From Campylobacter showae CSUNSWCD (GTDB taxonomy: Bacteria > Campylobacterota > Campylobacteria > Campylobacterales > Campylobacteraceae): DNA of 64,000 bases. Under the pieces are notes generated by a model. The model saw only the letters and a program-made list of their open reading frames with translations, ran no database searches and had not been told where the DNA came from. The first letter of the stretch is position 1. Each line of letters begins with the position of its first letter. The DNA lies in contig NZ_AMZQ01000008.1 of NCBI RefSeq assembly GCF_000313615.1, forward strand, positions 124,001 to 188,000, read 5' to 3'. The translations under genes were made by a program, and so were the position numbers. Below, in pieces: positions 7,611-64,000 of the stretch.

Positions 7611-8276
7611 ATGAAAACATGCGTCATCCTTGCCGGCGGTAAAAGCTCGCGAATGGGCCGCGACAAAACGCTACTGCCTTTTGGCGGATTTGCGACGCTC
7701 ACGCACTACGGAGCGCATAAATTCGGGCGGATTTTCGAGCGCGTATTCATTAGCTCCAAATTTGAAAAATTTAACCCACCCCTGCCGCTCATCAAAGACG
7801 CCGACGCAGAGGAGATCTCGCGGTCAAATTTGACCGAGGCGAGCGACAAAGAGGGTGCGCCAAAAAGCTCAGCTCAAATTTCCGCGCAAGATACGTCAAA
7901 TTTGAGCGAGCCAACCTTTTCTCCGATGCTAGCGCTTTACAGTATCCTTAAGAACTTCCCAAACGAAAGCGTCTTTATCGTTCCCGCCGATATGCCGTTT
8001 GTTAGCGAAAACTGCGTGCGCGAACTATATAAATTTACCGGCGAATACGACATGGTCATCGCCGCGGACGAGTCGCATACGCACTCGCTTTGCGGGTTTT
8101 TTAGCGGGGATTTAGCGGATGCGGCGGGCGAGCTTTTTGCCGCGGGCGAGCACAAGATCGGGCTTTTGCGCGACCGTTGCCGCTGCAAGATCGTAAAATT
8201 CGCAAACGCGGACGAGTTTTTTAACATCAACTATCAGGCAGATTACGAACAAGCCTTAAAAGAAGGAAAAATATGA
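7611..8276 (+). CDS. mobA: Molybdenum cofactor guanylyltransferase
   Basis: MobA transfers GMP from GTP to molybdopterin. The N-terminal motif ILAGGKSSRMGRDKTLLPFGG is diagnostic, and PADMPFVS near residue 125 carries the metal-binding aspartate. At 221 residues it is about 25-30 longer than usual. The excess lies at about residues 70-102, a low-complexity stretch rich in S, N, T and E whose DNA contains repeated TCAAATTTGA-type words. The protein should still fold because that region is a surface loop. It overlaps pldA by four bases. Confidence 0.93.
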   Translation: MKTCVILAGGKSSRMGRDKTLLPFGGFATLTHYGAHKFGRIFERVFISSKFEKFNPPLPLIKDADAEEISRSNLTEASDKEGAPKSSAQISAQDTSNLSEPTFSPMLALYSILKNFPNESVFIVPADMPFVSENCVRELYKFTGEYDMVIAADESHTHSLCGFFSGDLADAAGELFAAGEHKIGLLRDRCRCKIVKFANADEFFNINYQADYEQALKEGKI

Positions 8277-9367
8277 AAAAAATTATCGTTTTACTGGCGA
8301 TTTTGTTAAATTTAACCGTAGCTGGCGAGACGGAAACGGCGAAGCAAAATTTAGCCGGCCAGTCCGAAAATACGGCTGAAAATTTAACCGAGCCGACCGC
8401 CAAAGACGAAGCCAAGCGCCTCTACGAAGCCGCCGCAAAGCTCGAATACGAAGGCGACAAAACAAGAGCCCTTCAGCTTTATAAACTAGCGGCTAAAAAA
8501 GCGATATTTACGGACGAAGACGGCGAAACGGCTGCGATGGAACGCTCCGTGATCGCGCCCTCAGATAGCGTAGCGGACGCGCCCGTAGAGGAGCAAAAGA
8601 TCGCCTCCAAAGAGCGCCCGAAAGCGAAATTTGAAAGCGGTGAGGCATACGATGTGGATGAAATTTTGGGCTTAAAAATGCACCACCTAAACTACCTCTT
8701 GCCGGCAACCTACGCATTTAACGACGTCGAGGGCAGGCGTAGATTTGAGACCGCTTTTCAAATCAGCCTGCAAAAGCCGCTGTTTTACGACGTGTTTGAT
8801 ATGAATGAAACGATCTCGGCAGGCTACTCGCAAAGCTCGTGGTGGCAGACGGCTAAGAGCTCTACGCCGTTTCGCGAGACCAACTACCGCCCCGAGATTT
8901 TCATAACCGTTCCGATGAGATTTGAGGCGCTGCCGAGTCTTGATTATCTACGCGCGGGACTTTTGCATGAGAGTAACGGCCAGGGCGGCGAGAAGTCGCG
9001 CTCATGGAACCGCGTCTATCTCGAGGCTAAACTTTACGCCGGTAGCCTCGTCGTGATCCCGCGAGCGTGGGCGCGCATCCCTGAGAGCAAAGGCAGCGAC
9101 GACAATCCCGACATCGAAAAATACATCGGCAATATGGATATAAATTTCGCTCTGCCTTTCCGCGGCCACGTCTTTACGGCTATGGTGCGAAACAACCTGC
9201 ATTTTGATAAAACCAACCGCGGCGCGGGCGAGCTTGGGTGGCTATTTCCGTTTGGCAAGAGCGGCGTTTACGGCTACGTGAAGTACTTCACCGGATACGG
9301 CGAGAGCCTCATCGACTACAACCGCCACACCGATAAGGTCGGCATCGGCTTTGCGATTTTAAAATAA
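8273..9367 (+). CDS. pldA: Outer-membrane phospholipase A
   Basis: A signal peptide (residues 1-18) is followed by a charged alanine/glutamate-rich region up to about residue 125 and then the OMPLA beta-barrel. The catalytic triad is visible: H232 and S234 in LLHESNGQ, and N246 in SRSWNRVY. The spacing is identical to H142/S144/N156 of E. coli. The enzyme hydrolyses outer-membrane phospholipids and has been linked to haemolysis in Campylobacter. The N-terminal extension of about 100 residues is unusual for the family and may sit in the periplasm. The start overlaps the mobA stop (ATGA). Confidence 0.92.
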   Translation: MKKIIVLLAILLNLTVAGETETAKQNLAGQSENTAENLTEPTAKDEAKRLYEAAAKLEYEGDKTRALQLYKLAAKKAIFTDEDGETAAMERSVIAPSDSVADAPVEEQKIASKERPKAKFESGEAYDVDEILGLKMHHLNYLLPATYAFNDVEGRRRFETAFQISLQKPLFYDVFDMNETISAGYSQSSWWQTAKSSTPFRETNYRPEIFITVPMRFEALPSLDYLRAGLLHESNGQGGEKSRSWNRVYLEAKLYAGSLVVIPRAWARIPESKGSDDNPDIEKYIGNMDINFALPFRGHVFTAMVRNNLHFDKTNRGAGELGWLFPFGKSGVYGYVKYFTGYGESLIDYNRHTDKVGIGFAILK

Positions 9368-52061: not shown

Positions 52062-52138
52062 GTCACGGTAGCTCAGCTGGTTAGAGCGCTGGTCTCATAA
52101 GCCGGAGGTCGGGAGTTCAAGTCTCCCCCGTGACACCA
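52062..52138 (+). tRNA. tRNA-Met (anticodon CAT)
   Basis: The cloverleaf is complete: acceptor GTCACGG pairs with CCGTGAC, then discriminator A and an encoded CCA. The anticodon stem CTGGT/GCCGG holds the loop CTCATAA, so the anticodon is CAT. Position 1 is G paired to C, so it is not the initiator tRNA. A lysidine-modified tRNA-Ile(CAT) cannot be ruled out. The AT-rich gene cluster begins right after it. Confidence 0.93.
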
Positions 52139-52354: not shown

Positions 52355-52371
52355 TCGGCACAACTTTTGCT
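52355..52371 (+). promoter_or_regulatory. Sigma-54 promoter before the first cluster gene
   Basis: The sequence CGGCACAACTTTTGCT has the invariant GG-N10-GC of RpoN promoters and matches TGGCAC-N5-TTGC at nearly all positions. The expected start of transcription is about 20 bases before the ATG at 52405. In Campylobacter, sigma-54 drives mid-class flagellar genes. Confidence 0.7.
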
Positions 52372-52404: not shown

Positions 52405-53556
52405 ATGAAAGTCTCTTATAACTCCATCTTAACAAAACAGCACTACCAAAAACAGACAAAAAGCGAAGGCTTTGCAAATTTCTTGCCTAACACTCCAAAT
52501 ATAAATTCGATCAGCCAAACCACTACTCCCAAGAATGACTTTGTTTCATCTAGTAGTATCGACTCTCTTTATCAGGCTAAATTTACTTCACAAGAGGGCT
52601 ATGGGTATAGTGTAGATACTAAAGGATTTATGGGGGCTGATTTTAACAAAGCTGCAGGTCTGCCACAGGACTTTAAAATACACAAAAGCACGCTTGATGC
52701 GATAGTGCTGCACAATCAAAAGCACCCAAACTTTACAAATTTTTCAATGGAAACAAAGAAAGATAACCAACTCTTTGGAGAGGATAGCTTTGCAAATATC
52801 GATCTAGCAAATACCATAAAGCAATACTATAAAATTTTTGATCAAATTTCAGCTGGAGTTATTAGCAAGGGTAAAGAGTTTTACTCAAATGAAGATCTAG
52901 CAAAGATGCCAAAGGGCTACTTTTCAAAAGATAAAAAAATAGAGCATGTTGAATACCTAATGGGTAGGATGACTAGCGATGAGCTAGATGGGCTAACTGA
53001 TAGGAGTAATGAGAAGGTAACTCATATCTTTAGGACGACTCAAGACGCAGAATATGCACATAGGTTATGGGATGATCTAAGCGATATAAATGTAGAAGTC
53101 AATGGAAATTTCCTTGACTTTTCTCCAGAAGTGATGACAACTGAGCATACTATCCCTTATATGTGGGTTAGTAGTGCTGGATATGACTTTAAGCCTGATA
53201 TGTCTGTATATGACAATGAACAAGGCTATACAAAGGAGCAAATTTTTGTAGCATTTTTAAAAAACGAGCAAGGTCTTGTGCTGCAAGGCGGCACAACAAG
53301 AATAACTGACGAGGCTCTTAATGTGTATAAAAGTTCATTAATACTTACAAAACAAGATAGAAGTGAGATAGGCATACCAAAGGCTTATTATGATGAGATA
53401 CTATCTGGCAAGAAAGATCTAAAAGATATACTAGCCAGGATTTTAAAGCTTAGAAATTTAGAGCTTAAAAAAGATCAAACGCTTGAGGGACTAGCAAGCA
53501 AGATAATGGACGTTTTAAAAGAATTTGATGAGAGGACGAAGACAAGAGAGCTTTAA
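52405..53556 (+). CDS. Family A protein 1, unknown function
   Basis: The 383-residue protein has no signal peptide and starts with a disordered S/T/Q/N-rich stretch (about 1-60). Then comes the family A box at residues 66-98: GYGYSVDTKGFMGADFNKAA followed by GLPQDFKIHKSTLDA. Later shared elements are FANIDLANTIKQYYKIFDQI, LAKMPKGYFSK and DFKPDMSVYDNEQGYTKEQI. It is most similar to the truncated protein at 60360-61355. An AAGGAG box and a sigma-54 promoter precede it. The disordered N-terminus and flagellar-type promoter fit export through the flagellar apparatus, which is inference. The family is not one I recognise. Confidence 0.8.
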   Translation: MKVSYNSILTKQHYQKQTKSEGFANFLPNTPNINSISQTTTPKNDFVSSSSIDSLYQAKFTSQEGYGYSVDTKGFMGADFNKAAGLPQDFKIHKSTLDAIVLHNQKHPNFTNFSMETKKDNQLFGEDSFANIDLANTIKQYYKIFDQISAGVISKGKEFYSNEDLAKMPKGYFSKDKKIEHVEYLMGRMTSDELDGLTDRSNEKVTHIFRTTQDAEYAHRLWDDLSDINVEVNGNFLDFSPEVMTTEHTIPYMWVSSAGYDFKPDMSVYDNEQGYTKEQIFVAFLKNEQGLVLQGGTTRITDEALNVYKSSLILTKQDRSEIGIPKAYYDEILSGKKDLKDILARILKLRNLELKKDQTLEGLASKIMDVLKEFDERTKTREL

Positions 53557-53608
53557 AAAATATAACATAGTAGACATTCGCTCTAAGCCCTTTTAGACTA
53601 TAAACTAC

Positions 53609-53634
53609 TAAACATTTTTTATATTTGCCGATAT
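53609..53634 (+). promoter_or_regulatory. Sigma-28 (FliA) promoter before the EF-hand gene
   Basis: TAAACATT, then 10 bases, then GCCGATAT. This matches the FliA consensus TAAAGTTT-N11-GCCGATAA well, with spacing one base short. It ends 27 bases before the ATG. Confidence 0.7.
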
Positions 53635-53661
53635 AAGATATATATTTTAAAAGGATTTAGA

Positions 53662-55416
53662 ATGAATATATCACCAAATTTAGAGCCCATAAATATAAAT
53701 TTACCCAAAGATATGATCTATTCAAGGGTCCTTCTTGGCGTAGATAGAGTGCAAACTTTAGACAATACAAATTTAAAGTCTGAGCTTAAAGACATCGCTA
53801 CTAAGCTTATCTCAAATAGCACTTACTCTATCATCCAAAGCGCCAGCACCAGTGGCGTGAAGTCAGAGTATGCTAAAGCAGATAGTGGGACAAACGATGC
53901 TTTTTCTTATGTGGATATACAAAGAAGAAACTGGGACAAAAAAGACTTTGAGAACAAATATCTCTTTGGCGAAGATGCCTCAGCGCTAAGGAAAGTGGAT
54001 CAAACTAGCACCTATTTCTCATCTATAAATTCAAAAACTCCCATTAAGCCCATTGCGGCAGCAGATACTAAATTTACAAATTTAAATGACTATGCCTATG
54101 AAAAAACGATAAAAACCTCACTGGGTGATGTGGAGGTCTTTTTGGATCTTTATGACGATAACGACAAACTAGGCATAGGCAAGCTAGATGCAAATGGATT
54201 TTTATTTAACTTTGATAGCAACAAGGACGGAGTGATAAATTCTGGTGATAAATACTTTGATAAGCTAAAGGTTAGAGGCTACGACAAAGACGGAAATGAG
54301 AAAATTTTCAAACTAAGCGAAGTCGTAAGCGAGATAAACCTTAACGACTTTATTAAAAAAGATATTAGAAATTTAAGCCATGAGGCTATGGACTTTGCTA
54401 GCAAAAACACAGTTGATTACAGAGTTAGTTTAAACAACTCAAACCCTTATACTCTATTTTCGGCCGAGTATCGCTACCAAAAGATAGGCAAAGAAGAGAC
54501 TAATAAATTTTTTAAAGACCATGCAGACCAAGATGGCTGGGTAGATCTTAGGGATAATAAGATATTTAACGAAGAGAGTGGCTTAAACAACTTTGCCTAT
54601 GAGAAAGTTGGCTTTGACGGCAAGAAAAGGCTTAGCGAGTTTAACCCTATCATAAAACCTGCTGGATCCAAACAAGATGAGAGCTTTTCATACGCAGGCT
54701 ATCAAAAAGATAGCTTTATGAAATTTTATAACGACTACCAAAAAGAGTCTAGCGCTCACAGCAAAGATGTAGAGTGGATAAGCAAAAATTTAAAAGAAAA
54801 TGATGTAGAAGACGCAGATGATCTCATCTCAAAGCTAAAAGCCACAAAGTCATCTTATATGATCGCTATGGAGAGTGAGTTTGAAAAAGCAACTGGGCTT
54901 GATTTTAGCCTAGAAAATTTAGAAAGAGTAAAGCATGCTTTTGAGAGTGATACGAGCAAGGCAGCAGCTGCACTAAAAGACACAGACAGCGTAATAGCTA
55001 TGAAGCTAAATAAAAATGGCACGATCACACTTAAATTTGACAGCGGAAGAGAGCTAGAGGTAAAAGAAATTTATAACGACACTGGCAAGCTAATCAGCAA
55101 AGATGACAAGGATAGCAAAAGAGCAAGTATAAATTTAGACGCTAAAGCTATGAATGATGTAGAGCTAAATAGACTTGACTTTAAAGATATAGGTATAAAG
55201 CAAGATGAGAAGATATCTAGCCTAAAAGAGCTTGGAGCAAAGCTCGTTAAAAACCTCACTGATAAATTTACAAGTAAATTCCTAATCGGACTTGAAAACG
55301 GCAAAAGCATCACCACTAAAGAAATTTACAACATCACTTATCTTGAAAACGACCTAAAATTTAAAGAGCTATCTAGCAAAGATAGGCTTTATAAAAAGGT
55401 AGATACGAGAGTTTAG
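53662..55416 (+). CDS. Large EF-hand-like protein in the cluster, unknown function
   Basis: The 584-residue protein has no signal peptide. At residues 185-196 it has a calcium loop DSNKDGVINSGD, which fits the EF-hand or dockerin-type rule (D, N, D, G, I, acidic at 12). A second, degenerate loop HADQDGWVDLRD lies at 287-298. Between them is a YDKDGNEKIF segment. The C-terminal half is helical and charged. It is preceded by its own sigma-28 promoter and AAAAGGA. It follows a family A gene but is not of family B. Binding of calcium is inferred from the loop pattern. Confidence 0.78.
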   Translation: MNISPNLEPININLPKDMIYSRVLLGVDRVQTLDNTNLKSELKDIATKLISNSTYSIIQSASTSGVKSEYAKADSGTNDAFSYVDIQRRNWDKKDFENKYLFGEDASALRKVDQTSTYFSSINSKTPIKPIAAADTKFTNLNDYAYEKTIKTSLGDVEVFLDLYDDNDKLGIGKLDANGFLFNFDSNKDGVINSGDKYFDKLKVRGYDKDGNEKIFKLSEVVSEINLNDFIKKDIRNLSHEAMDFASKNTVDYRVSLNNSNPYTLFSAEYRYQKIGKEETNKFFKDHADQDGWVDLRDNKIFNEESGLNNFAYEKVGFDGKKRLSEFNPIIKPAGSKQDESFSYAGYQKDSFMKFYNDYQKESSAHSKDVEWISKNLKENDVEDADDLISKLKATKSSYMIAMESEFEKATGLDFSLENLERVKHAFESDTSKAAAALKDTDSVIAMKLNKNGTITLKFDSGRELEVKEIYNDTGKLISKDDKDSKRASINLDAKAMNDVELNRLDFKDIGIKQDEKISSLKELGAKLVKNLTDKFTSKFLIGLENGKSITTKEIYNITYLENDLKFKELSSKDRLYKKVDTRV

Positions 55417-55451
55417 GAGTAAATTTATGCAAACTAAAAACCTTTGTAAAA

Positions 55452-55478
55452 TAAATCTTTTCACAAAAAAGACGATAT
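55452..55478 (+). promoter_or_regulatory. Sigma-28 (FliA) promoter before the duplicated A-B operon
   Basis: TAAATCTT, exactly 11 bases, then GACGATAT. Spacing and both boxes agree with the FliA consensus. It ends 28 bases before the start of the first tandem A gene. Confidence 0.75.
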
Positions 55479-55506
55479 CTTTGGTATGAAGCTAAAAGGA
55501 TATTAG

Positions 55507-56688
55507 ATGATAAACGCACTTGGTAGCTACCCATTAAATTTAGAACAGAACATAAAGGTATCAACCAAAGTTGCCACCAAACAAACGAGCTCAGAGCTTT
55601 TAGGCTACAAGGTAGATAAGGATGGCTACTTTACAGATGAGTTTAATAAACAAGCTGGCATACCAAGTAATTATAAAATCCACTCAAGTACGCTGGAGTC
55701 GTTAGTAAGGATAGAGACGCAGTCTGACTATATGCAAAGGACTTTTGACAGCATCGATATACTAAAAACCGTAAATAATGCCTATAAAATCCTCTCACAA
55801 GTAGTTGGCGAAGACACGCTAAATTCAAAAGATAGCTTTAGCTTAGATGAGATAAGAAATTTCCCTCAAGGCTTTTCTTATAACCGCCAAAGTATGCAAG
55901 TAACCAAAATCCATAACTCCATTCATGAATTTGGCTCGGCTGCGGCTGATTTTAACGGCAAAGAGTCAAATAAGCAGATGATAAGCACGCTCTTTTTCAA
56001 TCCAAGCTTTGATGGCGGAGATGGTAGGCAGCCACTAAAGCCAACAACAGATATCTTTAACAACAACAATGGTGGCAAAGAAAACACGGTCATTGGTGTA
56101 TTTATGGATCCGCACGGAGAGAAATACACAAATAAAGACGGCTCAATAACCAAAGGCGGACTTATAGCAGCCGTTATAAACAATAACCTTGATGTGAGAG
56201 AGGGCGAGACAACCGCAAGAGGCAAAAGAGAAGGCTATGATAAGAGCGTAGATAGCAAAGAATTTAATAGAGCATTTGAGCTGTTTGAACTTATGGGCGA
56301 GATGAAATTTGGACCTGGCTTTATAAATGCTACCGATAACGATATAGCAGGTATGCCTAAATATATGCAAGATCACATTAGATCTAAAAGAGACTTTGTC
56401 TATATCGACTTAGAAAGTGGCTTTGTCAGCACTCCTGAAGATAGACGTAGGGGATATGAAGAAGACGAACTATCATTTAAAAAGATGATGGAGCGTAATC
56501 TAAAAATGCTAAAGCTACTCTTTGGTGAGATAGACAAGGACGGCAAAAAGAGCAAGGACTTTATGGATAGCTTTTTGAAATTTAGCATGCCACCTTTAAA
56601 TTTAGTAAAAGAGCTAAATGAAAACCCAGCTGGAAAATACCTAGTAGATATGCTTGGTATAAAAAGAGATGTTGATATAAAGGTGTAG
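55507..56688 (+). CDS. Family A protein 2, first tandem copy
   Basis: The 393-residue protein lacks a signal peptide and starts MINALGSYPLNLEQNIKVST. The family A box is at about 33-60: GYKVDKDGYFTDEFNKQAGI then YKIHSSTLESLV. A long C-terminal block (KKMMERNLKMLKLLFGEIDK onward, with an acidic DKDGKKSKD segment) is almost identical in the next copy. The middle (about residues 60-330) differs more. It is the first gene of an operon read from a sigma-28 promoter and is followed after 12 bases by a family B gene. Confidence 0.8.
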   Translation: MINALGSYPLNLEQNIKVSTKVATKQTSSELLGYKVDKDGYFTDEFNKQAGIPSNYKIHSSTLESLVRIETQSDYMQRTFDSIDILKTVNNAYKILSQVVGEDTLNSKDSFSLDEIRNFPQGFSYNRQSMQVTKIHNSIHEFGSAAADFNGKESNKQMISTLFFNPSFDGGDGRQPLKPTTDIFNNNNGGKENTVIGVFMDPHGEKYTNKDGSITKGGLIAAVINNNLDVREGETTARGKREGYDKSVDSKEFNRAFELFELMGEMKFGPGFINATDNDIAGMPKYMQDHIRSKRDFVYIDLESGFVSTPEDRRRGYEEDELSFKKMMERNLKMLKLLFGEIDKDGKKSKDFMDSFLKFSMPPLNLVKELNENPAGKYLVDMLGIKRDVDIKV

Positions 56689-56700
56689 GGGGGAGTTAAA

Positions 56701-57492
56701 ATGATAACTAGCATAAACGGACTTAGCAACACACCGATACAAGACAACACTATCCAAAAAGAAAATATACCTAAAGATACCAAAGATGATGAAAAGGCCA
56801 AAATAGAAGCTTTATGGTATAGTCCAGTTGGAAAGAGCATAAAAGAGATTATTGACATAGACGAAAATGAAGATAATTGGGTTGCAAAAACGATAAGCAA
56901 AATAGATAATATGCTTTCTAAGCGTTACAATACCGAACAAGATCGCAACGCCATGTCGATGAAACAGCCAAAAACTTTAGAAGAAGCAAAAGATCAAGTC
57001 CTTATAATGTATTCTGATATATTAAAGGAAAACTCTGTTGATGGCAAGCCAACCATGATGGGCAAACTAATAGGTCTTGGCACAAAAGAAGAGGAGGCTG
57101 ACTTAAGAGCATTTATGGACAGCATGTCTTCTCTTTACCCAAATGAAAACAAGGAGTCGCTTAGCCTTTTAAGTAGAACCGATCTAAGCATAGATGAATT
57201 TAAAACATTATTTGCCAAAGCAAGAGAGAAAGCAACAAAGGATGTTGCAGAACAAAGAAAGCAAATAATCAAAGAAGAGCAAGAATACAATGCAAATTTT
57301 GCTAAAGAGCAGTCTGAGAAAAAATTTAAACCTATGCAGGTTAAGAAGAAGTATGAGACATATGATATAAATAAGGATCAAAAATTTCTCTATGCAAGAG
57401 AGCTTTTAAATTTCAAAGAAAAAAGAGGCATAGATGTCTTAGAGCTTATGCAAAAGATAGATAAGAAGCAAATTTTAAATAAGATGGCTTAA
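56701..57492 (+). CDS. Family B protein 1, first tandem copy
   Basis: The 263-residue helical, charged protein starts MITSINGLSNTPIQDNTIQK. It ends with a conserved block: AKEQSEKKFKPMQVKKKYET, YDINKDQKFLYARELLNFKE and VLELMQKIDKKQILNKMA. The centre has little similarity to the second copy. A GGGGGAG box precedes the ATG. Its constant position directly after an A gene suggests a partner (chaperone, co-effector or immunity-like), but no function is recognised. Confidence 0.78.
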   Translation: MITSINGLSNTPIQDNTIQKENIPKDTKDDEKAKIEALWYSPVGKSIKEIIDIDENEDNWVAKTISKIDNMLSKRYNTEQDRNAMSMKQPKTLEEAKDQVLIMYSDILKENSVDGKPTMMGKLIGLGTKEEEADLRAFMDSMSSLYPNENKESLSLLSRTDLSIDEFKTLFAKAREKATKDVAEQRKQIIKEEQEYNANFAKEQSEKKFKPMQVKKKYETYDINKDQKFLYARELLNFKEKRGIDVLELMQKIDKKQILNKMA

Positions 57493-57508
57493 ATTTAAAG
57501 GATATTAG

Positions 57509-58675
57509 ATGATAAACGCACTTGGTAGCTACCCCTTAAATTTAGAGCAGAACATAAAGGTATCAACCAAAGTTGCCACCAAACAAACCAGCTCAGAGGT
57601 TTTAGGCTACAAGGTAGATAAGGATGGCTACTTTACAGATGAGTTTAATAAACAAGCTGGCATCCCAAGTGAATATAAAATTCACTCAAGCACGCTGGAG
57701 TCTTTAGTCAATGTTGCAGAGGGGACATCATTTTTTAGTCGCACCTTTAAAAGCATAGATATAGCAAAGACTGCTGGCAATGCCTACAAAATTCTCTGCC
57801 AAGTCGTTGGCGAAGACACGCTAAATTCAAAAGATAGCTTTAGCATTGACGAGATAAGAAATTTCCCACAAGGCTTTTCTTATAACCGCCAAAGTATGCA
57901 AGTAACTAAGATCCATAACTCCATTTATGACTTTGATGCAGCTGCTTCTAGCTTTAACTACAAAGAGTCAAACAAGCAGATGATAAGCACGCTCTTTTTC
58001 AACCCAAGCTTTGATGGCGGAGATGGCATGCAGCCACTAAAGCCAACAACAGATATCTTTAACAACAATAATGGTGGCAAAGAGAGTGTGGGAAGTGGTG
58101 TTTTTATCGATCCACACGGCGAAAGATACACAAACAAAGATGGCTCTATAACTAGAGGCGGACTTTTAGCAGCCGTCATAAACAGCAACCTTGACGTCAA
58201 AGAAGGTGAAACCACTGTTTTTGGAAAGAAGCAAGGCTTTGATAAGAGCGTAGATAGTAAAGAATTTAGTAGGGCATTTGAGCTATTTGAACTTATGGGC
58301 GAGATGAAATTTGGAGCAAATTTCAACAAAGCAAGCGACTCTGATCTAGCTGGTATGCCTGCATATATGCAAGAGTATGCTAAGTATAAAAGAGACCTTG
58401 TCTATGTAGATCTAACGACTGGGTTTGTCGGTAAGTATTCAGATGAAGAAGACGAACCCTCATTTAAAAAGATGATGGAGCATAATCTAAAAATGCTAAA
58501 GCTACTCTTTGGTGAGATAGACAAAGACGGCAAAAAGAGCAAAGACTTTATGGATAGCTTTTTAAAATTTAGCATGCCACCTTTAAATTTAGTAAAAGAG
58601 CTAAATGAAAACCCAGCTGGAAAATACCTAGTAGATATGCTTGGCATAAAAAGAGATATTGATATAAAGGCGTAG
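57509..58675 (+). CDS. Family A protein 3, second tandem copy
   Basis: The 388-residue protein is a close paralogue of the preceding A protein. The first 56 residues and the last 70 are nearly the same in both, including FLKFSMPPLNLVKELNENPA near the end. The region after the A box differs (NVAEGTSFFSRTFKSIDIAK here), as does the segment before the C-terminal block. It has its own AAAGGA box but no separate promoter is visible, so it is probably transcribed with the upstream pair. Confidence 0.8.
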   Translation: MINALGSYPLNLEQNIKVSTKVATKQTSSEVLGYKVDKDGYFTDEFNKQAGIPSEYKIHSSTLESLVNVAEGTSFFSRTFKSIDIAKTAGNAYKILCQVVGEDTLNSKDSFSIDEIRNFPQGFSYNRQSMQVTKIHNSIYDFDAAASSFNYKESNKQMISTLFFNPSFDGGDGMQPLKPTTDIFNNNNGGKESVGSGVFIDPHGERYTNKDGSITRGGLLAAVINSNLDVKEGETTVFGKKQGFDKSVDSKEFSRAFELFELMGEMKFGANFNKASDSDLAGMPAYMQEYAKYKRDLVYVDLTTGFVGKYSDEEDEPSFKKMMEHNLKMLKLLFGEIDKDGKKSKDFMDSFLKFSMPPLNLVKELNENPAGKYLVDMLGIKRDIDIKA

Positions 58676-58687
58676 GGGGGAGTTGAA

Positions 58688-59476
58688 ATGATAACTAGCA
58701 TAAACGGACTTAGCAATACACCGATACAAGAAACAACTATCCAAAAAGAAAATGCAAAAATGTCAAAGGAGCAAGAAAAGGCTTTAATTGATTCATATAT
58801 GCAAAATTTAATAATTGATAATGTTGAAAAATACATCAAAGAAGACAGAAGTAGTGAAAACTGGATAACAGAAACCATAGAGAAGATAGACAATATGCTT
58901 TCAAAAAAGTATAGCTATACCATTGATGAAAGGCGAGCTTTATTATCAAAATATCCAGAGAACTTAGAAGAATTTGAGATCAATGTATTACAATCTCACA
59001 TGGACTGGTTGCTTTCTAACTCAGTAGATGGCAAGCCAACAATATCTGGGCTAATGGTTGGTATCGGCACAGCAGAACAAGAGGCTGAGCTAGAATATTT
59101 TATGAAATCATTTTCTGAAGATACAATGATGAGTAATGATGGTGCTAGATTGTTTGCTAGAGCTGATCTAAGTATAGAAGAGTTTAAAAAGCTTTATAGA
59201 AAAGATGTAGAAAAAACTACAAAAGAGCATAAAGAATTTCTAGCCAAACTACATAAAGAAGAACAAGAATACAATGCAAATTTCGCTAAAGAGCAAAGCG
59301 AGAAGAAATTTAAACCTATGCAGGTTAAAAAGAAGTATGAGACCTATGATATAAACAAGGATCAAAAATTTATCTATGCAAGAGAGCTTTTAAATTTCAA
59401 AGAAAAAAGAGACATAGACGTCTTAGAGCTTATGCAAAAGATAGATAAGAAGCAAATTTTAAATAAGATGGCTTGA
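58688..59476 (+). CDS. Family B protein 2, second tandem copy
   Basis: The 262-residue protein shares the first 15 residues and about the last 70 with the first B copy. The central 170 residues are rewritten (KMSKEQEKALIDSYMQNLII and on). It begins 12 bases after the A gene, exactly as in unit 1. No terminator with a strong stem follows, though the next genes are on the opposite strand. Confidence 0.78.
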   Translation: MITSINGLSNTPIQETTIQKENAKMSKEQEKALIDSYMQNLIIDNVEKYIKEDRSSENWITETIEKIDNMLSKKYSYTIDERRALLSKYPENLEEFEINVLQSHMDWLLSNSVDGKPTISGLMVGIGTAEQEAELEYFMKSFSEDTMMSNDGARLFARADLSIEEFKKLYRKDVEKTTKEHKEFLAKLHKEEQEYNANFAKEQSEKKFKPMQVKKKYETYDINKDQKFIYARELLNFKEKRDIDVLELMQKIDKKQILNKMA

Positions 59477-59539
59477 TGAATAAAAAATAGCTACTTTGTT
59501 TTATTGTAGAAAGCAATGATTGCTCTAAATTTAGTCCTT

Positions 59540-60193
59540 TTATACGGTTTTATCCACTTTTTTATTTGCGACTTTTTCTAAAATTTCGAATATACTTTCG
59601 CCATTATCAAATTCAGTTTTTATAAATTTGTAAAATTCTTTAAATTTTTCATCGGCTTGCATATCATAAGTTTTAAATTTTTTAGTTACTTGCATAGGTT
59701 TAAAGGCTTCTTGTTTTTGCGTGTCAGTTTGATTGTCTTGTTCTTCATGATCGCTTTTTTGATCCATTAGCCCATAGTCACCAACCTCTTGCGGCATACC
59801 CCTATTTATAACCTTAGAATATCTCTCAATAAATTCATCCACACTTATATTAGACGATTCAAGGAGCTCGCGACCCTCATTACTAAAAGACACACCAAAT
59901 CTTTCTAAAGTTTGACGTATCTTTTGTCCTTCTAGATCATTATCTGATTTTTTGCCCCAAATGGTTTGTTTATCATCATTGTAGGATTTAAAAGCTCCAG
60001 TAAAGTTTGTGCTATTGCCCATCACTTTCTTATAATTAACTCTACTTGCGAATTCTTTTCCTTCAAATAGTGAGTTGTTATTTAGATTTGGCGAATAGGT
60101 TATATTATTAAGCATTGCTAAGGTCTCACTTTGTTTAGGTATTCCAGCATCTCTTTCATAGGTTTTAATTCTTTTTATGGTATTAATTTGCAT
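59540..60193 (-). CDS. Family B protein 3, divergent, opposite strand
   Basis: The 217-residue protein belongs to family B by its C-terminus: KQEAFKPMQVTKKFKTYDMQ, ADEKFKEFYKF and IFEILEKVANKK match the FKPMQVKKKYETYDI block of the other B proteins. The N-terminal two-thirds is unrelated in sequence. It follows the truncated A gene (60360-61355) on the same strand after 166 bases, repeating the A-then-B order. The ribosome site is weak. Confidence 0.7.
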   Translation of the reverse strand: MQINTIKRIKTYERDAGIPKQSETLAMLNNITYSPNLNNNSLFEGKEFASRVNYKKVMGNSTNFTGAFKSYNDDKQTIWGKKSDNDLEGQKIRQTLERFGVSFSNEGRELLESSNISVDEFIERYSKVINRGMPQEVGDYGLMDQKSDHEEQDNQTDTQKQEAFKPMQVTKKFKTYDMQADEKFKEFYKFIKTEFDNGESIFEILEKVANKKVDKTV

Positions 60194-60314
60194 TAGAGCA
60201 TCTTGCTACCACCTATCCAGCAATGCTGTTTTATACACTAACACACATTCAGCTAAAGAATATAAATTCAACCTACTTAGGTTTAATGCTTTTATGGGCT
60301 AGAGTATAATCAAT

Positions 60315-60343
60315 AACTAAATCGACCTTTTAGCGATTTAGTT
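60315..60343 (-). terminator. Hairpin between the opposite-strand A and B genes
   Basis: AACTAAATCG and CGATTTAGTT pair perfectly over 10 bases around a 9-base loop, 16 bases past the stop of the A gene. No long T run follows, so it may only attenuate. Confidence 0.4.
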
Positions 60344-60359
60344 TATATATAACTTATCT

Positions 60360-61355
60360 CTACACAAAAGTCTTACTGATAGAGCTTATCCTCTCACTCC
60401 AAGAATTTGCTAGAGAATTTATATCCTCGCCAGCTGGCTTAAATTTCTCATATTCGTTTGAGGTGACACTTTCTGCGTTAATGTTCTTTGATCTTGCATA
60501 CATTAAAAGTGTTAGCTCTTTAAGTCTTTCTTTTATGAGCGCTTTTATGCTCTCACTATCCTTACCCACTTTTTCAAAATCCACAAAATACTCTTTATGC
60601 TCTCCAGTGCTTGAGATATCATTTAAGGCAGCACTGCTAAGCTTAGTCTTTGCACTATCACTTGGTAGCGGTCTAGAGCTGCGCAAAAATCCCATAAAAA
60701 GAGCCTCTTTGCTGTAACCTTCATCTGCTTGATATACCGACATATCAGGGTTAAAACTAAACTCATCACCTGCTTCGCTCATCGTAAAATCAACCTCTTT
60801 TACTATGAGCCTAACGCCTGCACTTGATAGTTCTTTACTTAGAGACTTAGCGCTATTTAGCTCATCGGTGCTAGAGTAGATGTTTGAGATAGTAGAGTTT
60901 GATAGATCTTTTAGCAAATGTCCTTTGGCGTCATAGTGAGTGCCTTTTGTGCTGTAACCTTTTGGTAGTTTGTCTATATCTGCAAGGGTGTAACTCTTTT
61001 TATCATCACCTAAAGCAGAGGTCATTTGATCAAATAGTCTGTAGTAGTGCTTTATGGTGTCGGCCATATCGATGTTGTCAAAGATCTTTATCTGCTCGTC
61101 TTTGCTTTTGATGCGGTTTAGCACATGGTTGCGCTCGGCAAATCTACTAAGCTCATCAAGTGTGCTTTTATGGATTTTAAAGTCCTTTGGCAAGCCTGCG
61201 GCTTTGTTAAAATCAGCTCCCATAAAACCTGCTTTATCCACTGTGTAGCCATAAGCTTGAAGGTCATTAAAATTTAAAGAGACGAGACTGTTTTGAGAGG
61301 GAATAGTATAAGTAAATTTAGCTGGCTCTTGGAGTAATAGAATTAAGGAGAACAC
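60360..61355 (-). pseudogene. Family A protein 4, 5' end cut by the mobile element
   Basis: The 331 codons are clearly of family A and closest to protein 1: GYTVDKAGFMGADFNKAAGL then FKIHKSTLDEL at residues 36-66, FDNIDMADTIKHYYRLFDQM, and FSFNPDMSVYQADEGYSKEA. The frame begins at a GTG (61355) directly after an in-frame stop, has no ribosome site, and its first 8 residues (MFSLILLL) do not look like family N-termini, which are disordered and polar. The neighbouring bases at about 61340-61430 belong to the recombinase element. I read this as a gene that lost its start at the insertion point. Confidence 0.6.
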
Positions 61356-61405
61356 TTAATCACTATATTAGTGAAATATGTACTTCTTAATTCTTTTTTA
61401 TTTAA

Positions 61406-62614
<1,209 letters not shown>

Positions 62615-62620
62615 AATGAA

Positions 62621-63277
62621 ATGGAAGAAAAGGAAAAAGTAGAGATAGAAAAGAAAAAAATAAGATTAATGGAAAGTAAAAACAGGCTTCAGGAACTTGA
62701 ACGATTGATGTGCCGTATTTACGAAGATATGATACTTGAAAAAATACCAAGTAATAGATATGAGATACTTAACAGTCAATATGAAACAGAGCAAATAGCT
62801 TTAAGCAAAGAAATTAAAGACTTAGAGTTTGCAATATCAAGATATGAAAAAGAAACAGATAAGGCGAAAAAGTTTATATCTCTAATAAGCCGATATGAAA
62901 ATTTTGATGAACTTACAACTACAATGATAAATGAGTTTGTAGAAAAGATTATTGTTCATGAAAGGAATAGAAAAGGTAGTCAAACATCAAAGCAAAAAAT
63001 AGAGATATATTTTAATTTTATCGGTAACTATGAGCCACCAAAAGAAGAATTGACTGAAGAAGAAGAAGAAGAAAGATTAAAAATTGAGGAAGAAGAGAGA
63101 AAAATCAAGGAAAGAAAAGATAGACTTCATCAAAACTACTTAAAGCGTAAAGTAAATGGAAAACAACAGGAATATGAGGAAAGGTATAAGGCAAGGAGAG
63201 AACAGAGAAAACAAGAAAAATTAAAGGTTCTGAAAAGGGCAGGTATACAAGTTAATAAGTTAGAAAAAAGAGATTGA
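62621..63277 (+). pseudogene. Large serine recombinase, C-terminal part
   Basis: Only two codons (AAT GAA) separate the TAA from this frame, and both are in the same phase. The 218 residues form the long coiled coil (EKKKIRLMESKNRLQELERL and on) and the DUF4368-type end with FVEKIIVHERNRKG and KIEIYFNFIGNY. In intact relatives the two parts are one protein. An ATG at 62621 could start a separate fragment, but it lacks a ribosome site. Confidence 0.88.
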
Positions 63278-63297
63278 AGTTAGTCAATCTCTTTTTT
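63264..63297. terminator. Bidirectional terminator between recombinase and methyltransferase
   Basis: A perfect 14-bp stem (AAAAAAGAGATTGA and its complement) with a 6-base loop has A/T runs on both sides and includes the final codons of both convergent genes. Confidence 0.85.
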
Positions 63298-64000
63298 AGT
63301 ACAGGTATCAAGTATATCAATTATGTTATTTGCAATTGCATGGATAACAGTAACGGCAACAGAATTACCAAACTGTTTGTAACTTTGAGTATCACTTACA
63401 GGAATGATATAGTTTTCGGGGAAGCCTTGAAGTCTTGCAGCTTCACGAGGTGTTAGTTTTCGTGGATTTTTTCCTTTTTGCTCAATAAGTATTTCACTCC
63501 CGTCTTTATAATATCTTGCAGATAATGTATTTGTATAAGGACTGTTTTCATTGAACAATGTGTAACCAAATCCATTTCCCTTTATTTTATGTTCTTTCTT
63601 TCGTCGTTGATGACCTTGCCAAAGTGCATTTGAAATGGTGTATTTAGTATCAACATTTTGCTCTAAAATATTTCCCACAGAAACATCTGGGCAGGGAGGA
63701 ATTGGAAAAGAAAAATCTTTATAGTTATCTATTTTATCCTTATCAAATCCAACAATGTAAATACGCTCTCTATTTTGTGGAACACCGAAGTCTTTTGCTT
63801 TAAGTATAATAGAATGAACATCGTAGTTTAAATCCTTTAATGTTTTTTCTATTGTTTTATAGGTACGACCTTTATCGTGAGATTTTAGGTTTTTGACATT
63901 TTCAAGAAGAAATGCCTTAGGTCGTTTCTCTTTAATAATTCTTGCAATTTCAAAAAATAATGTTCCACGAGTATCTTCAAAACCAAGCTTTTTACCGGCT
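63280..64000 (-). CDS. DNA (cytosine-5) methyltransferase, C-terminal part (runs off the window)
   Basis: The 239 visible residues lack the N-terminus, which lies to the right of the window. Motif IV appears as FLLENVKNLKSHDKG, then VPQNRERIYIVGF (motif VIII region), a variable target-recognition stretch, motif IX RKLTPREAARLQGFPENY and motif X YKQFGNSVAVTVIHAIA. It methylates cytosine C5 in DNA and may belong to a restriction-modification system or act alone as an anti-restriction cargo gene of the element. A GTG at 63678 could look like a start but is internal. Codon use is AT-rich like the recombinase. Confidence 0.92.
   Translation of the reverse strand, partial: AGKKLGFEDTRGTLFFEIARIIKEKRPKAFLLENVKNLKSHDKGRTYKTIEKTLKDLNYDVHSIILKAKDFGVPQNRERIYIVGFDKDKIDNYKDFSFPIPPCPDVSVGNILEQNVDTKYTISNALWQGHQRRKKEHKIKGNGFGYTLFNENSPYTNTLSARYYKDGSEILIEQKGKNPRKLTPREAARLQGFPENYIIPVSDTQSYKQFGNSVAVTVIHAIANNIIDILDTCTKKEID

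What the first reader, a model, noticed from the sequence alone, without database searches (positions are those of the whole stretch)
52405..61355. Unrecognised paralogous A-B gene system in a flagellar-type regulon
Eight genes in AT-rich DNA form two families that I cannot place: family A (52405, 55507, 57509, 60360) shares the box GY.VD..GF...FN..AG.P..(F/Y)KIH.STL, and family B (56701, 58688, 59540) shares FKPMQV.KK..TYD near the C-terminus. B follows A three times, once on the opposite strand. None has a signal peptide, and the first 40-60 residues of the intact A proteins and the start of the B proteins are polar and rich in S, T, N and Q. The promoters are of sigma-54 and sigma-28 type. 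I infer secreted proteins co-expressed with flagella (similar in regulation to the Fed/Cia proteins of C. jejuni), with B as partner.
Basis: partly seen in the sequence, partly recalled or inferred. Interest (0 to 1): 0.74.

Follow-up and report, generated by a model that had tools for sequence, protein, structure and literature searches.

The report
Mobile island carrying flagellum-export protein genes
A stretch of mobile DNA, recently passed between Campylobacter species, carries three families of genes whose switches and protein make-up look tailored to being made and exported with the host's flagellum; one family is already on file as flagellum-dependent secreted proteins, the other two match no known family.

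Summary
The genes are real. Family A is not unplaced: all four proteins pass the NCBIfam cut-off for NF046095, 'Cj0814 family flagellar-dependent secreted protein'. Family B and an overlooked third gene (C, 53662-55416) reach no Pfam or NCBIfam cut-off. Signs of flagellar export: sigma-54 or sigma-28 boxes enriched upstream of homologues; near-absence of cysteine (A 0.30, B 0.04, C 0.17 per 1000 residues against 12.2 in neighbouring proteins); presence almost only with FlhA (A 91 of 118 genomes against 1 of 35); polar N-termini. A splits into class I (sigma-54) and class II (sigma-28). Class II, B and C share a C-terminal tail, about [VLI]D[ITVKM][KRTN][VA]-stop, seen in 0 of 210 other proteins, though not exclusive genome-wide. 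B is related to the C-terminal half of class II A; in relatives both modules are fused. The genes are cargo of a 22.6-kb island with integrase and mobilisation genes in tRNA-Met, 97-99.5% identical to one in a C. concisus-like genome whose purF is only 73% identical; two relatives show the empty site. Export itself is inferred.

The parts
52062..52138 (+). tRNA-Met (CAT), integration site; its last 45 bp (52094-52138) are attL
   Evidence: ARAGORN; 45-bp 100% direct repeat at L069 14657-14701 = G000:C8:198656-198700; empty sites in L151 and L152
52357..52370 (+). sigma-54-type promoter box GGCACAACTTTTGC upstream of A1
   Evidence: only exact match in window; box recurs upstream of class I A genes
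52405..53556 (+). A1, class I member of NF046095 (383 aa)
   Evidence: 169.6 bits, cut-off 80
53609..53634 (+). sigma-28-type promoter (TAAA..GCCGATAT) upstream of C
   Evidence: CGATWW in 4 of 5 dedup C upstreams
53662..55416 (+). C, 584 aa, third family; no Pfam or NCBIfam cut-off reached, no PHROG hit; tail VDTRV
   Evidence: relatives in 52 of 153 family genomes
55473..55478 (+). sigma-28-type -10 box CGATAT, putative promoter of the A2-B1-A3-B2 operon (a TAAA lies 17 bp upstream, outside the spacing searched)
   Evidence: sequence
55507..56688 (+). A2, class II member of NF046095 (393 aa), tail VDIKV
   Evidence: 254.7 bits
56701..57492 (+). B1, 263 aa; disordered leader, helical core, C-box FKPMQVKKKYETYD
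57509..58675 (+). A3, class II member of NF046095 (388 aa), tail IDIKA
   Evidence: 237.3 bits
58688..59476 (+). B2, 262 aa
   Evidence: codon comparison with B1
59540..60193 (-). B3, divergent B (217 aa), tail VDKTV; no box within 110 bp upstream (a CGATTT lies at 60319-60324, 126 bp upstream); matches in G279, G285 and G176 contain a stop
60360..61355 (-). A4, class I member of NF046095 whose 5' end is displaced by an inserted element (homology to an uninterrupted copy ends at 61332)
   Evidence: 222.9 bits
61430..62614 (+). serine recombinase of the nested element (with DUF4368 protein 62621-63277 and a C5 methyltransferase from 63280 on the - strand)

Best explanation
The region is the cargo half of a mobilisable genomic island integrated in tRNA-Met. 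The cargo is a set of proteins made in step with flagellum building and exported through the host's flagellar type III apparatus. Class I A proteins (here A1; A4 is interrupted) are made early from sigma-54 promoters with hook and basal-body genes; class II A, B and C are made late from sigma-28 promoters with the filament and FlgM genes. Export relies on an unfolded polar N-terminus; the proteins are nearly cysteine-free, as exported flagellar proteins usually are (recalled). The common C-terminal tail of the late proteins may be an export, chaperone or anchoring signal. A2-B1 and A3-B2 are two diversified copies of one cassette with constant ends and variable middles; A and B probably act together outside the cell, most likely at the surface of host cells, as the C. 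jejuni protein that I take to be a relative does. Shown here: family of A, promoter boxes in homologues, cysteine depletion, tail, relation of A and B, island structure and recent spread between species. Inferred: export, timing, role of the tail, A-B contact, role at host cells.
For: A in NF046095. Boxes after removing near-identical upstream regions: A 28/50 sigma-54, 12/50 CGATWW; B 1/50 and 23/50; C 0/5 and 4/5; other genes 3/148 and 14/148. Promoter class follows a 100/100-supported split of A (30 sequences): sigma-54 with tail 1, without 39; sigma-28 with tail 18, without 4 (two truncated, two started inside the gene); neither box 18. Tail: A 28/86, B 40/80 (looser pattern 65/80), C 19/22, others 0/210; over distinct C-terminal contexts 4/26, 10/24, 3/5, 0/151. 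DNA pattern for the tail: 74 matches in 15 hand-picked flagellated genomes (26 for the reversed pattern) against 12 in 7 FlhA-lacking genomes (reversed 26). Cysteine-free proteins: 78/86, 79/80, 21/22 against 22/210. FlhA: A 91/118 against 1/35, wide B 84/118 against 1/35, C 52/118 against 0/35. FlgM genes of four of these genomes begin MI and have a GCCGAT box. A-B fusions. B1 model: residues 1-24 and 254-263 under pLDDT 50, helical core mostly 82-96. Island. Literature: Scanlan 2017 (PMC5223770, Results and Discussion read): CJM1_0791 (48.9 kDa) depends on the flagellum for its presence in the supernatant and its mutant adheres to and invades CACO-2 cells less; NF046095 members of three genomes of genus g2, which I take to be the C. 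jejuni group, are 47.3, 47.5 and 49.1 kDa.
Against: No expression or secretion data for this genome. Scanlan et al. call CJM1_0791 a putative lipoprotein and allow an indirect effect of losing the flagellum; that CJM1_0791 is Cj0814 is my inference from family name and size. Of the 35 FlhA-lacking genomes 14 are one genus, so the co-occurrence rests on few independent events, and 27 of 118 FlhA-bearing genomes have no A match, 12 of them in the window's own genus. In the window itself the boxes are not or only modestly above chance, and CGATAT also lies inside the genes. L072 has a class II protein with a sigma-54 box. The B1/B2 tail is LNKMA, off the strict pattern. Tail matches also occur in FlhA-lacking genomes (12 in 7). 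The tree tool warned that long branches meet in this tree and that only 12 of 27 inner branches are well supported. 'Other' proteins are predicted ORFs of 200 aa or more, not curated genes.
Confidence: 0.72

Rival explanations
1. B is a cytoplasmic partner (export chaperone) of A that stays in the cell.
For: 12-bp spacing A2-B1 and A3-B2 with no box of its own; B core is helical, as many type III chaperones are (recalled); B directly follows A in 11 of 21 cases.
Against: B has a polar leader and mostly a tail like that of class II A, is cysteine-free in 79 of 80 cases, is fused to A in one chain in relatives, and 23 of 50 B upstream regions carry a CGATWW box; at 217-263 aa in the window it is large for a chaperone (recalled).
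Confidence: 0.12
2. A, B and C are minor structural or accessory parts of the flagellum (hook or filament cap, coat, junction), not released proteins.
For: Two promoter classes match early and late structural genes; the shared tail could be an assembly signal.
Against: Patchy, multi-copy and partly mobile distribution (0 to 19 A matches per genome; 27 of 118 FlhA-bearing genomes without A); the CJM1_0791 mutant of Scanlan 2017 had wild-type motility.
Confidence: 0.15
3. The cargo serves the mobile island or competition between bacteria (for example exported proteins acting on neighbouring cells) and not contact with host tissue.
For: Carriage beside a relaxase homologue, NikA/MobC, ParE toxin and integrase; constant ends with variable middles, as in polymorphic exported proteins (recalled).
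Against: No toxin, immunity or enzyme domain found in A, B or C (for C only a weak FrpC-module match); A matches are widespread in genus g2, where no island was looked for.
Confidence: 0.15
4. Ordinary AT-rich island genes without flagellar link; boxes and tail are chance.
For: Window-level counts: sigma-28 pattern 11 against 5.35 expected, sigma-54 pattern below chance with one mismatch.
Against: Homologue-level promoter enrichment, cysteine depletion, FlhA co-occurrence and NF046095 membership.
Confidence: 0.04

Closest known systems
NCBIfam NF046095, Cj0814 family flagellar-dependent secreted protein
   Same: All four A proteins score 2 to 3 times the curated cut-off.
   Different: The 224-position model takes in both class I (sigma-54) and class II (sigma-28, tail) proteins and does not cover B or C.
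CJM1_0791 / CJJ81176_0835 of C. jejuni (Scanlan 2017, PMC5223770; Results and Discussion read, rest as passages)
   Same: Flagellum-dependent in supernatant; 48.9 kDa, the size of three NF046095 members measured.
   Different: Its sequence was not compared here; identity with Cj0814 is inferred; no mobile island is mentioned in the sections read.
Fed and Cia proteins, FspA, FlaC of C. jejuni
   Same: Non-structural proteins of the flagellar regulon, some exported by the flagellum (PMC9856085 passages; PMC6196472 passages; PMC5223770).
   Different: No sequence relation tested; here there are paralogous cassettes on an island and sigma-54 as well as sigma-28 boxes.
CON_PiiB island of C. concisus (Chung 2016, PMC5133609, passages seen)
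   Same: Integrated at a tRNA-Met-CAT with an integrase.
   Different: 38,653 bp, type IV secretion genes, different att sequence; 'flagell' does not occur in that text.
Csep1 of C. concisus (PMC12904459, passages seen)
   Same: Secreted, plasmid-encoded C. concisus protein.
   Different: Helical solenoid with disulfides; A and B have almost no cysteine and found no PDB sequence match.

Membership tests
NF046095 (Cj0814 family) | profile score above the curated cut-off of 80 bits | tested here: met
   A1 169.6, A2 254.7, A3 237.3, A4 222.9
NF046095 (Cj0814 family) | flagellum-dependent appearance in the supernatant | not testable with these tools
   only a C. jejuni protein that I take to be a member was tested in print
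NF046095 (Cj0814 family) | B and C are members | tested here: not met
   no NF046095 hit for B1, B2, B3 or C; only unrelated hits far below cut-off for B2 and C
Flagellar type III export substrates (general kind) | promoters of the flagellar sigma factors | tested here: inconclusive
   sequence boxes enriched in homologues, weak in the window alone; no expression data
Flagellar type III export substrates (general kind) | unfolded, polar N-terminus without cleaved signal | tested here: inconclusive
   S/T/N/Q-rich first 40 residues, B1 residues 1-24 pLDDT under 50; no signal-peptide predictor run
Flagellar type III export substrates (general kind) | occurs only with the flagellar export gate | tested here: met
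   A 91/118 FlhA+ against 1/35 FlhA- (the one is 89% complete)
Flagellar type III export substrates (general kind) | measured export | not testable with these tools
   needs culture supernatants
Fed / Cia proteins | sequence relation to Fed or Cia proteins | not tested
   no Fed or Cia sequence was fetched
Integrative mobilisable island in a tRNA gene | integrase next to att direct repeats at a tRNA 3' end | tested here: met
   45-bp 100% repeat, Phage_integrase protein of 653 aa beside attR
Integrative mobilisable island in a tRNA gene | empty site in relatives | tested here: met
   G335 (L151) and G338 (L152); G339 has related DNA at the site, G340's locus ends there
Integrative mobilisable island in a tRNA gene | relaxase and accessory protein | tested here: inconclusive
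   NikA-like/MobC over cut-off in this genome; the neighbouring 543-aa protein itself has no Pfam hit at E 0.001, its G244 homologue is a Relaxase over cut-off
Integrative mobilisable island in a tRNA gene | excision and transfer observed | not testable with these tools
   only inferred from 97-99.5% identity across species
CON_PiiB island | att sequence AGTCCTGGTGAACCCACCA | tested here: not met
   att here is the 45-bp end of another tRNA-Met sequence; published att

The most novel reading that the evidence does not exclude
A mobile island has plugged its cargo into the host's flagellar assembly programme: an early (sigma-54) and a late (sigma-28) set of exported proteins, the late set of three families marked by one common C-terminal tail that acts as a late-export or surface-anchoring signal not described before, with A-B cassettes diversifying in their middles while leader, C-box and tail stay fixed.
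Probability: 0.3. Interest if true: 0.78.

Novelty: new variant of a known kind. Interest (0 to 1): 0.56.

Why it matters
How Campylobacter uses the flagellum as a secretion system, and which signals mark its cargo, is an open question with few confirmed substrates. This set adds two families without a name in the libraries searched to a curated one, offers simple marks (promoter class, cysteine absence, C-terminal tail, FlhA co-occurrence) to find more, and shows that such genes move between species on an integrative island. The tail is a directly testable candidate signal.
Full report
What is there. The finding covers eight ORFs on AT-rich DNA (34-37% G+C against 44-50% in the 10 kb before it). 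With a small correction the A box is GY.VD..G[FY]....FN..AG.P..[FY]KIH.STL; it and the B box FKPMQV.KK..TYD occur only in these genes in the six frames of the window.

Family A is known. All four A proteins pass the cut-off of NCBIfam NF046095, 'Cj0814 family flagellar-dependent secreted protein'. Scanlan et al. 2017 (PMC5223770; Results and Discussion read in full, other parts as outline and passages) found that CJM1_0791 = CJJ81176_0835 (48.9 kDa) depends on the flagellum for its presence in C. jejuni supernatants and that its mutant adheres to and invades CACO-2 cells less, with motility like the wild type; they also call it a putative lipoprotein and warn that the effect may be indirect. 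NF046095 members of three genomes of genus g2 are 47.3, 47.5 and 49.1 kDa. That g2 is the C. jejuni group, and that this protein is Cj0814, are my inferences. B and C reached no Pfam or NCBIfam cut-off, nor did the wider B relatives scanned, except the two A-B fused ones.

B and its relation to A. A wide B family emerged: polar leader, a module (T/S)(I/V)WGK..G(Y/L)D...S..E...L..F, then LLDSDLSIDEFK..W, the C-box FKPIQA.SK..TY, and a short tail (alignment A3, 17 rows). A profile of B built without the fused rows finds the C-terminal part of five long proteins (378-515 aa; four from G291 in g2, one from G013 of another family) at 2.5e-13 to 8e-24, and class II A proteins at 2e-4 and 2e-3. All five places also have NF046095 matches over the cut-off in the same open frame (two of them re-scanned: 83.0 and 180.7 bits). 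So A and B modules occur in one chain elsewhere, which argues that separate A and B act together; but B is also a paralogue, not only a partner. A mixed A profile against B gave no signal. Unique 'MITSING' B genes lie directly behind an A gene in 11 of 21 cases, behind another B in 3, behind another gene in 1, and have no complete ORF within 60 bp in 6, some perhaps at locus edges. Of 153 family genomes 72 have both A and wide B matches, 20 A alone, 13 wide B alone (one mistyped genome taken out).

Two classes of A. On a tree of 30 A and fused sequences a branch with 100/100 support parts class I (17 rows) from class II (13 rows, five of them fused); the tool warned that long branches meet in this tree, and 12 of 27 inner branches are well supported. 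Among A proteins of 200 aa or more, a sigma-54 box goes with no tail in 39 and with tail in 1; a sigma-28 box goes with tail in 18 and without in 4, of which two are truncated and two were started inside the gene; 18 had neither box (8 with tail, six of them second genes of an operon; 10 without, six of them interrupted A4 copies). In the window A1 has the sigma-54 box (52357-52370), C and A2 have CGATAT boxes (53629, 55473); A3, B1 and B2 have none and follow A2 in an operon with gaps of 12-16 bp; none was found within the range searched for B3 and A4. After removal of near-identical upstream regions the boxes stand in A 28/50 (sigma-54) and 12/50 (CGATWW), B 1/50 and 23/50, C 0/5 and 4/5, other genes 3/148 and 14/148. 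In the window alone these patterns are weak (11 against 5.35 expected, reached by 3 of 100 shuffles; 15 against 26 with one mismatch).

A shared C-terminal tail. The tail [VLI]D[ITVKM][KRTN][VA]-stop ends 28 of 86 A proteins (those placed on the tree are all class II), 40 of 80 B (65 of 80 with a looser pattern), 19 of 22 C and none of 210 other predicted proteins of 200 aa or more from the same loci; counted over distinct C-terminal contexts 4/26, 10/24, 3/5 and 0/151. No test here relates C to A or B. A DNA pattern for the tail gave 74 matches in 15 flagellated genomes against 26 for the reversed pattern, and 12 against 26 in 7 genomes of an FlhA-lacking genus; I chose these 22 genomes by hand, most of the 15 because they carry A or B. 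In the window's own genome it gave 3 matches, two of them A2 and A3. Some matches (FDIKA) recur in flagellated and FlhA-lacking genomes and look like one unrelated protein, so the tail is not exclusive.

Signs of flagellar export. Cysteine: A 0.30, B 0.04, C 0.17 per 1000 residues against 12.16; cysteine-free 78/86, 79/80, 21/22 against 22/210. That exported flagellar proteins avoid cysteine is recalled. Genomes: in 153 genomes of the family, FlhA is in 118. A is in 92, of which 91 have FlhA; wide B in 85, of which 84; C in 52, all with FlhA. The one exception for A and B is the same 89%-complete genome, G385. Of the 35 FlhA-lacking genomes 14 are one genus, so these are few independent events; and 27 of the 118 have no A, 12 of them in the window's own genus. 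Short ORFs that I take to be FlgM in four of these genomes begin MIGTLG, MINPIQ, MIRPLN and MINPIH and carry a GCCGAT box, resembling class II leaders such as MINALG; this is a likeness by eye. The model of B1 has a confident helical core (residues about 31-205, block means mostly 82-96) and unfolded ends, leader (1-24) and tail (254-263) included; no solved structure matches it well.

Cassette evolution. A2-B1 and A3-B2 are two copies of one cassette, 79% identical over 2013 aligned bases. In both pairs the ends are nearly constant and the middle varies; over B codons 201-225, which hold the C-box, there are 7 synonymous and no non-synonymous differences, which speaks for selection on the box and not merely recent copying.

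The island. The last 45 bp of tRNA-Met (52094-52138) recur exactly at G000:C8:198656-198700, 22.6 kb away and outside the window. Next to that repeat lies a 653-aa tyrosine integrase; further in are a ParE toxin, a NikA/MobC-like protein and a 543-aa protein in DNA 91% identical to that of a Pfam-recognised relaxase gene of G244. In G335 and G338, whose purF is 92% and 91% identical, the two outer flanks are contiguous at the tRNA: the empty site. The island is 97-99.5% identical from end to end to one in G285, whose purF is only 73% identical to that of the window genome. The island has therefore moved between species recently.

A nested element. A serine recombinase element with DUF4368 protein, C5 methyltransferase and EcoRII-C-type endonuclease sits in the 5' region of A4 (from about 61332; the A4-side homology resumes near L069 9000) in this genome, and the alignment runs unbroken through the left junction in G285, G279 and one island of G267. 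Uninterrupted copies of 366-368 aa with a sigma-54 box are in L054, L142, L099 and L103. It is described only.

Judgement. New, as far as the searches here go, are family B in detail, family C, the two promoter classes, the common tail and the mobile island. Export, the role of the tail and A-B contact remain to be shown.

Noticed in passing
window 61332-64000 and L069 1334-9000: Nested element with serine recombinase, DUF4368 protein, C5 methyltransferase and EcoRII-C-type endonuclease inserted in the 5' region of A4, with the same left junction in G285, G279 and G267, so island and insert seem to travel together.
   Followed up: partly
window 53662-55416: C holds a loop that looks dockerin-like (DSNKDGVINSGD; likeness recalled) and a weak match to the FrpC self-processing module (E 0.022).
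   Followed up: no
L051 158-2407 and L057 10724-12974: In G279 and G244 a 713-aa ORF (Phage_integrase in L057) lies beside the left end of the island, and the shared DNA starts in mid-tRNA, as if islands sit in tandem at this tRNA-Met.
   Followed up: no
G360, G361, G364, G365, G389: Some g2 genomes have 13 to 19 A matches: strong copy-number expansion.
   Followed up: no
L146 9518-11121 and L055 4849-6478: B genes in pairs (MQIS type followed by MITSING type) without a class II A gene in front.
   Followed up: partly
G285:C2:207673, G244:C1:525663, G351:C2:279668, G208:C1:824179: Match ending FDIKA in flagellated and FlhA-lacking genomes, probably one unrelated housekeeping protein.
   Followed up: no
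L149 (IMG/VR contig), 8001-8667: One viral-collection contig encodes a B relative, perhaps host DNA in a predicted virus contig.
   Followed up: no
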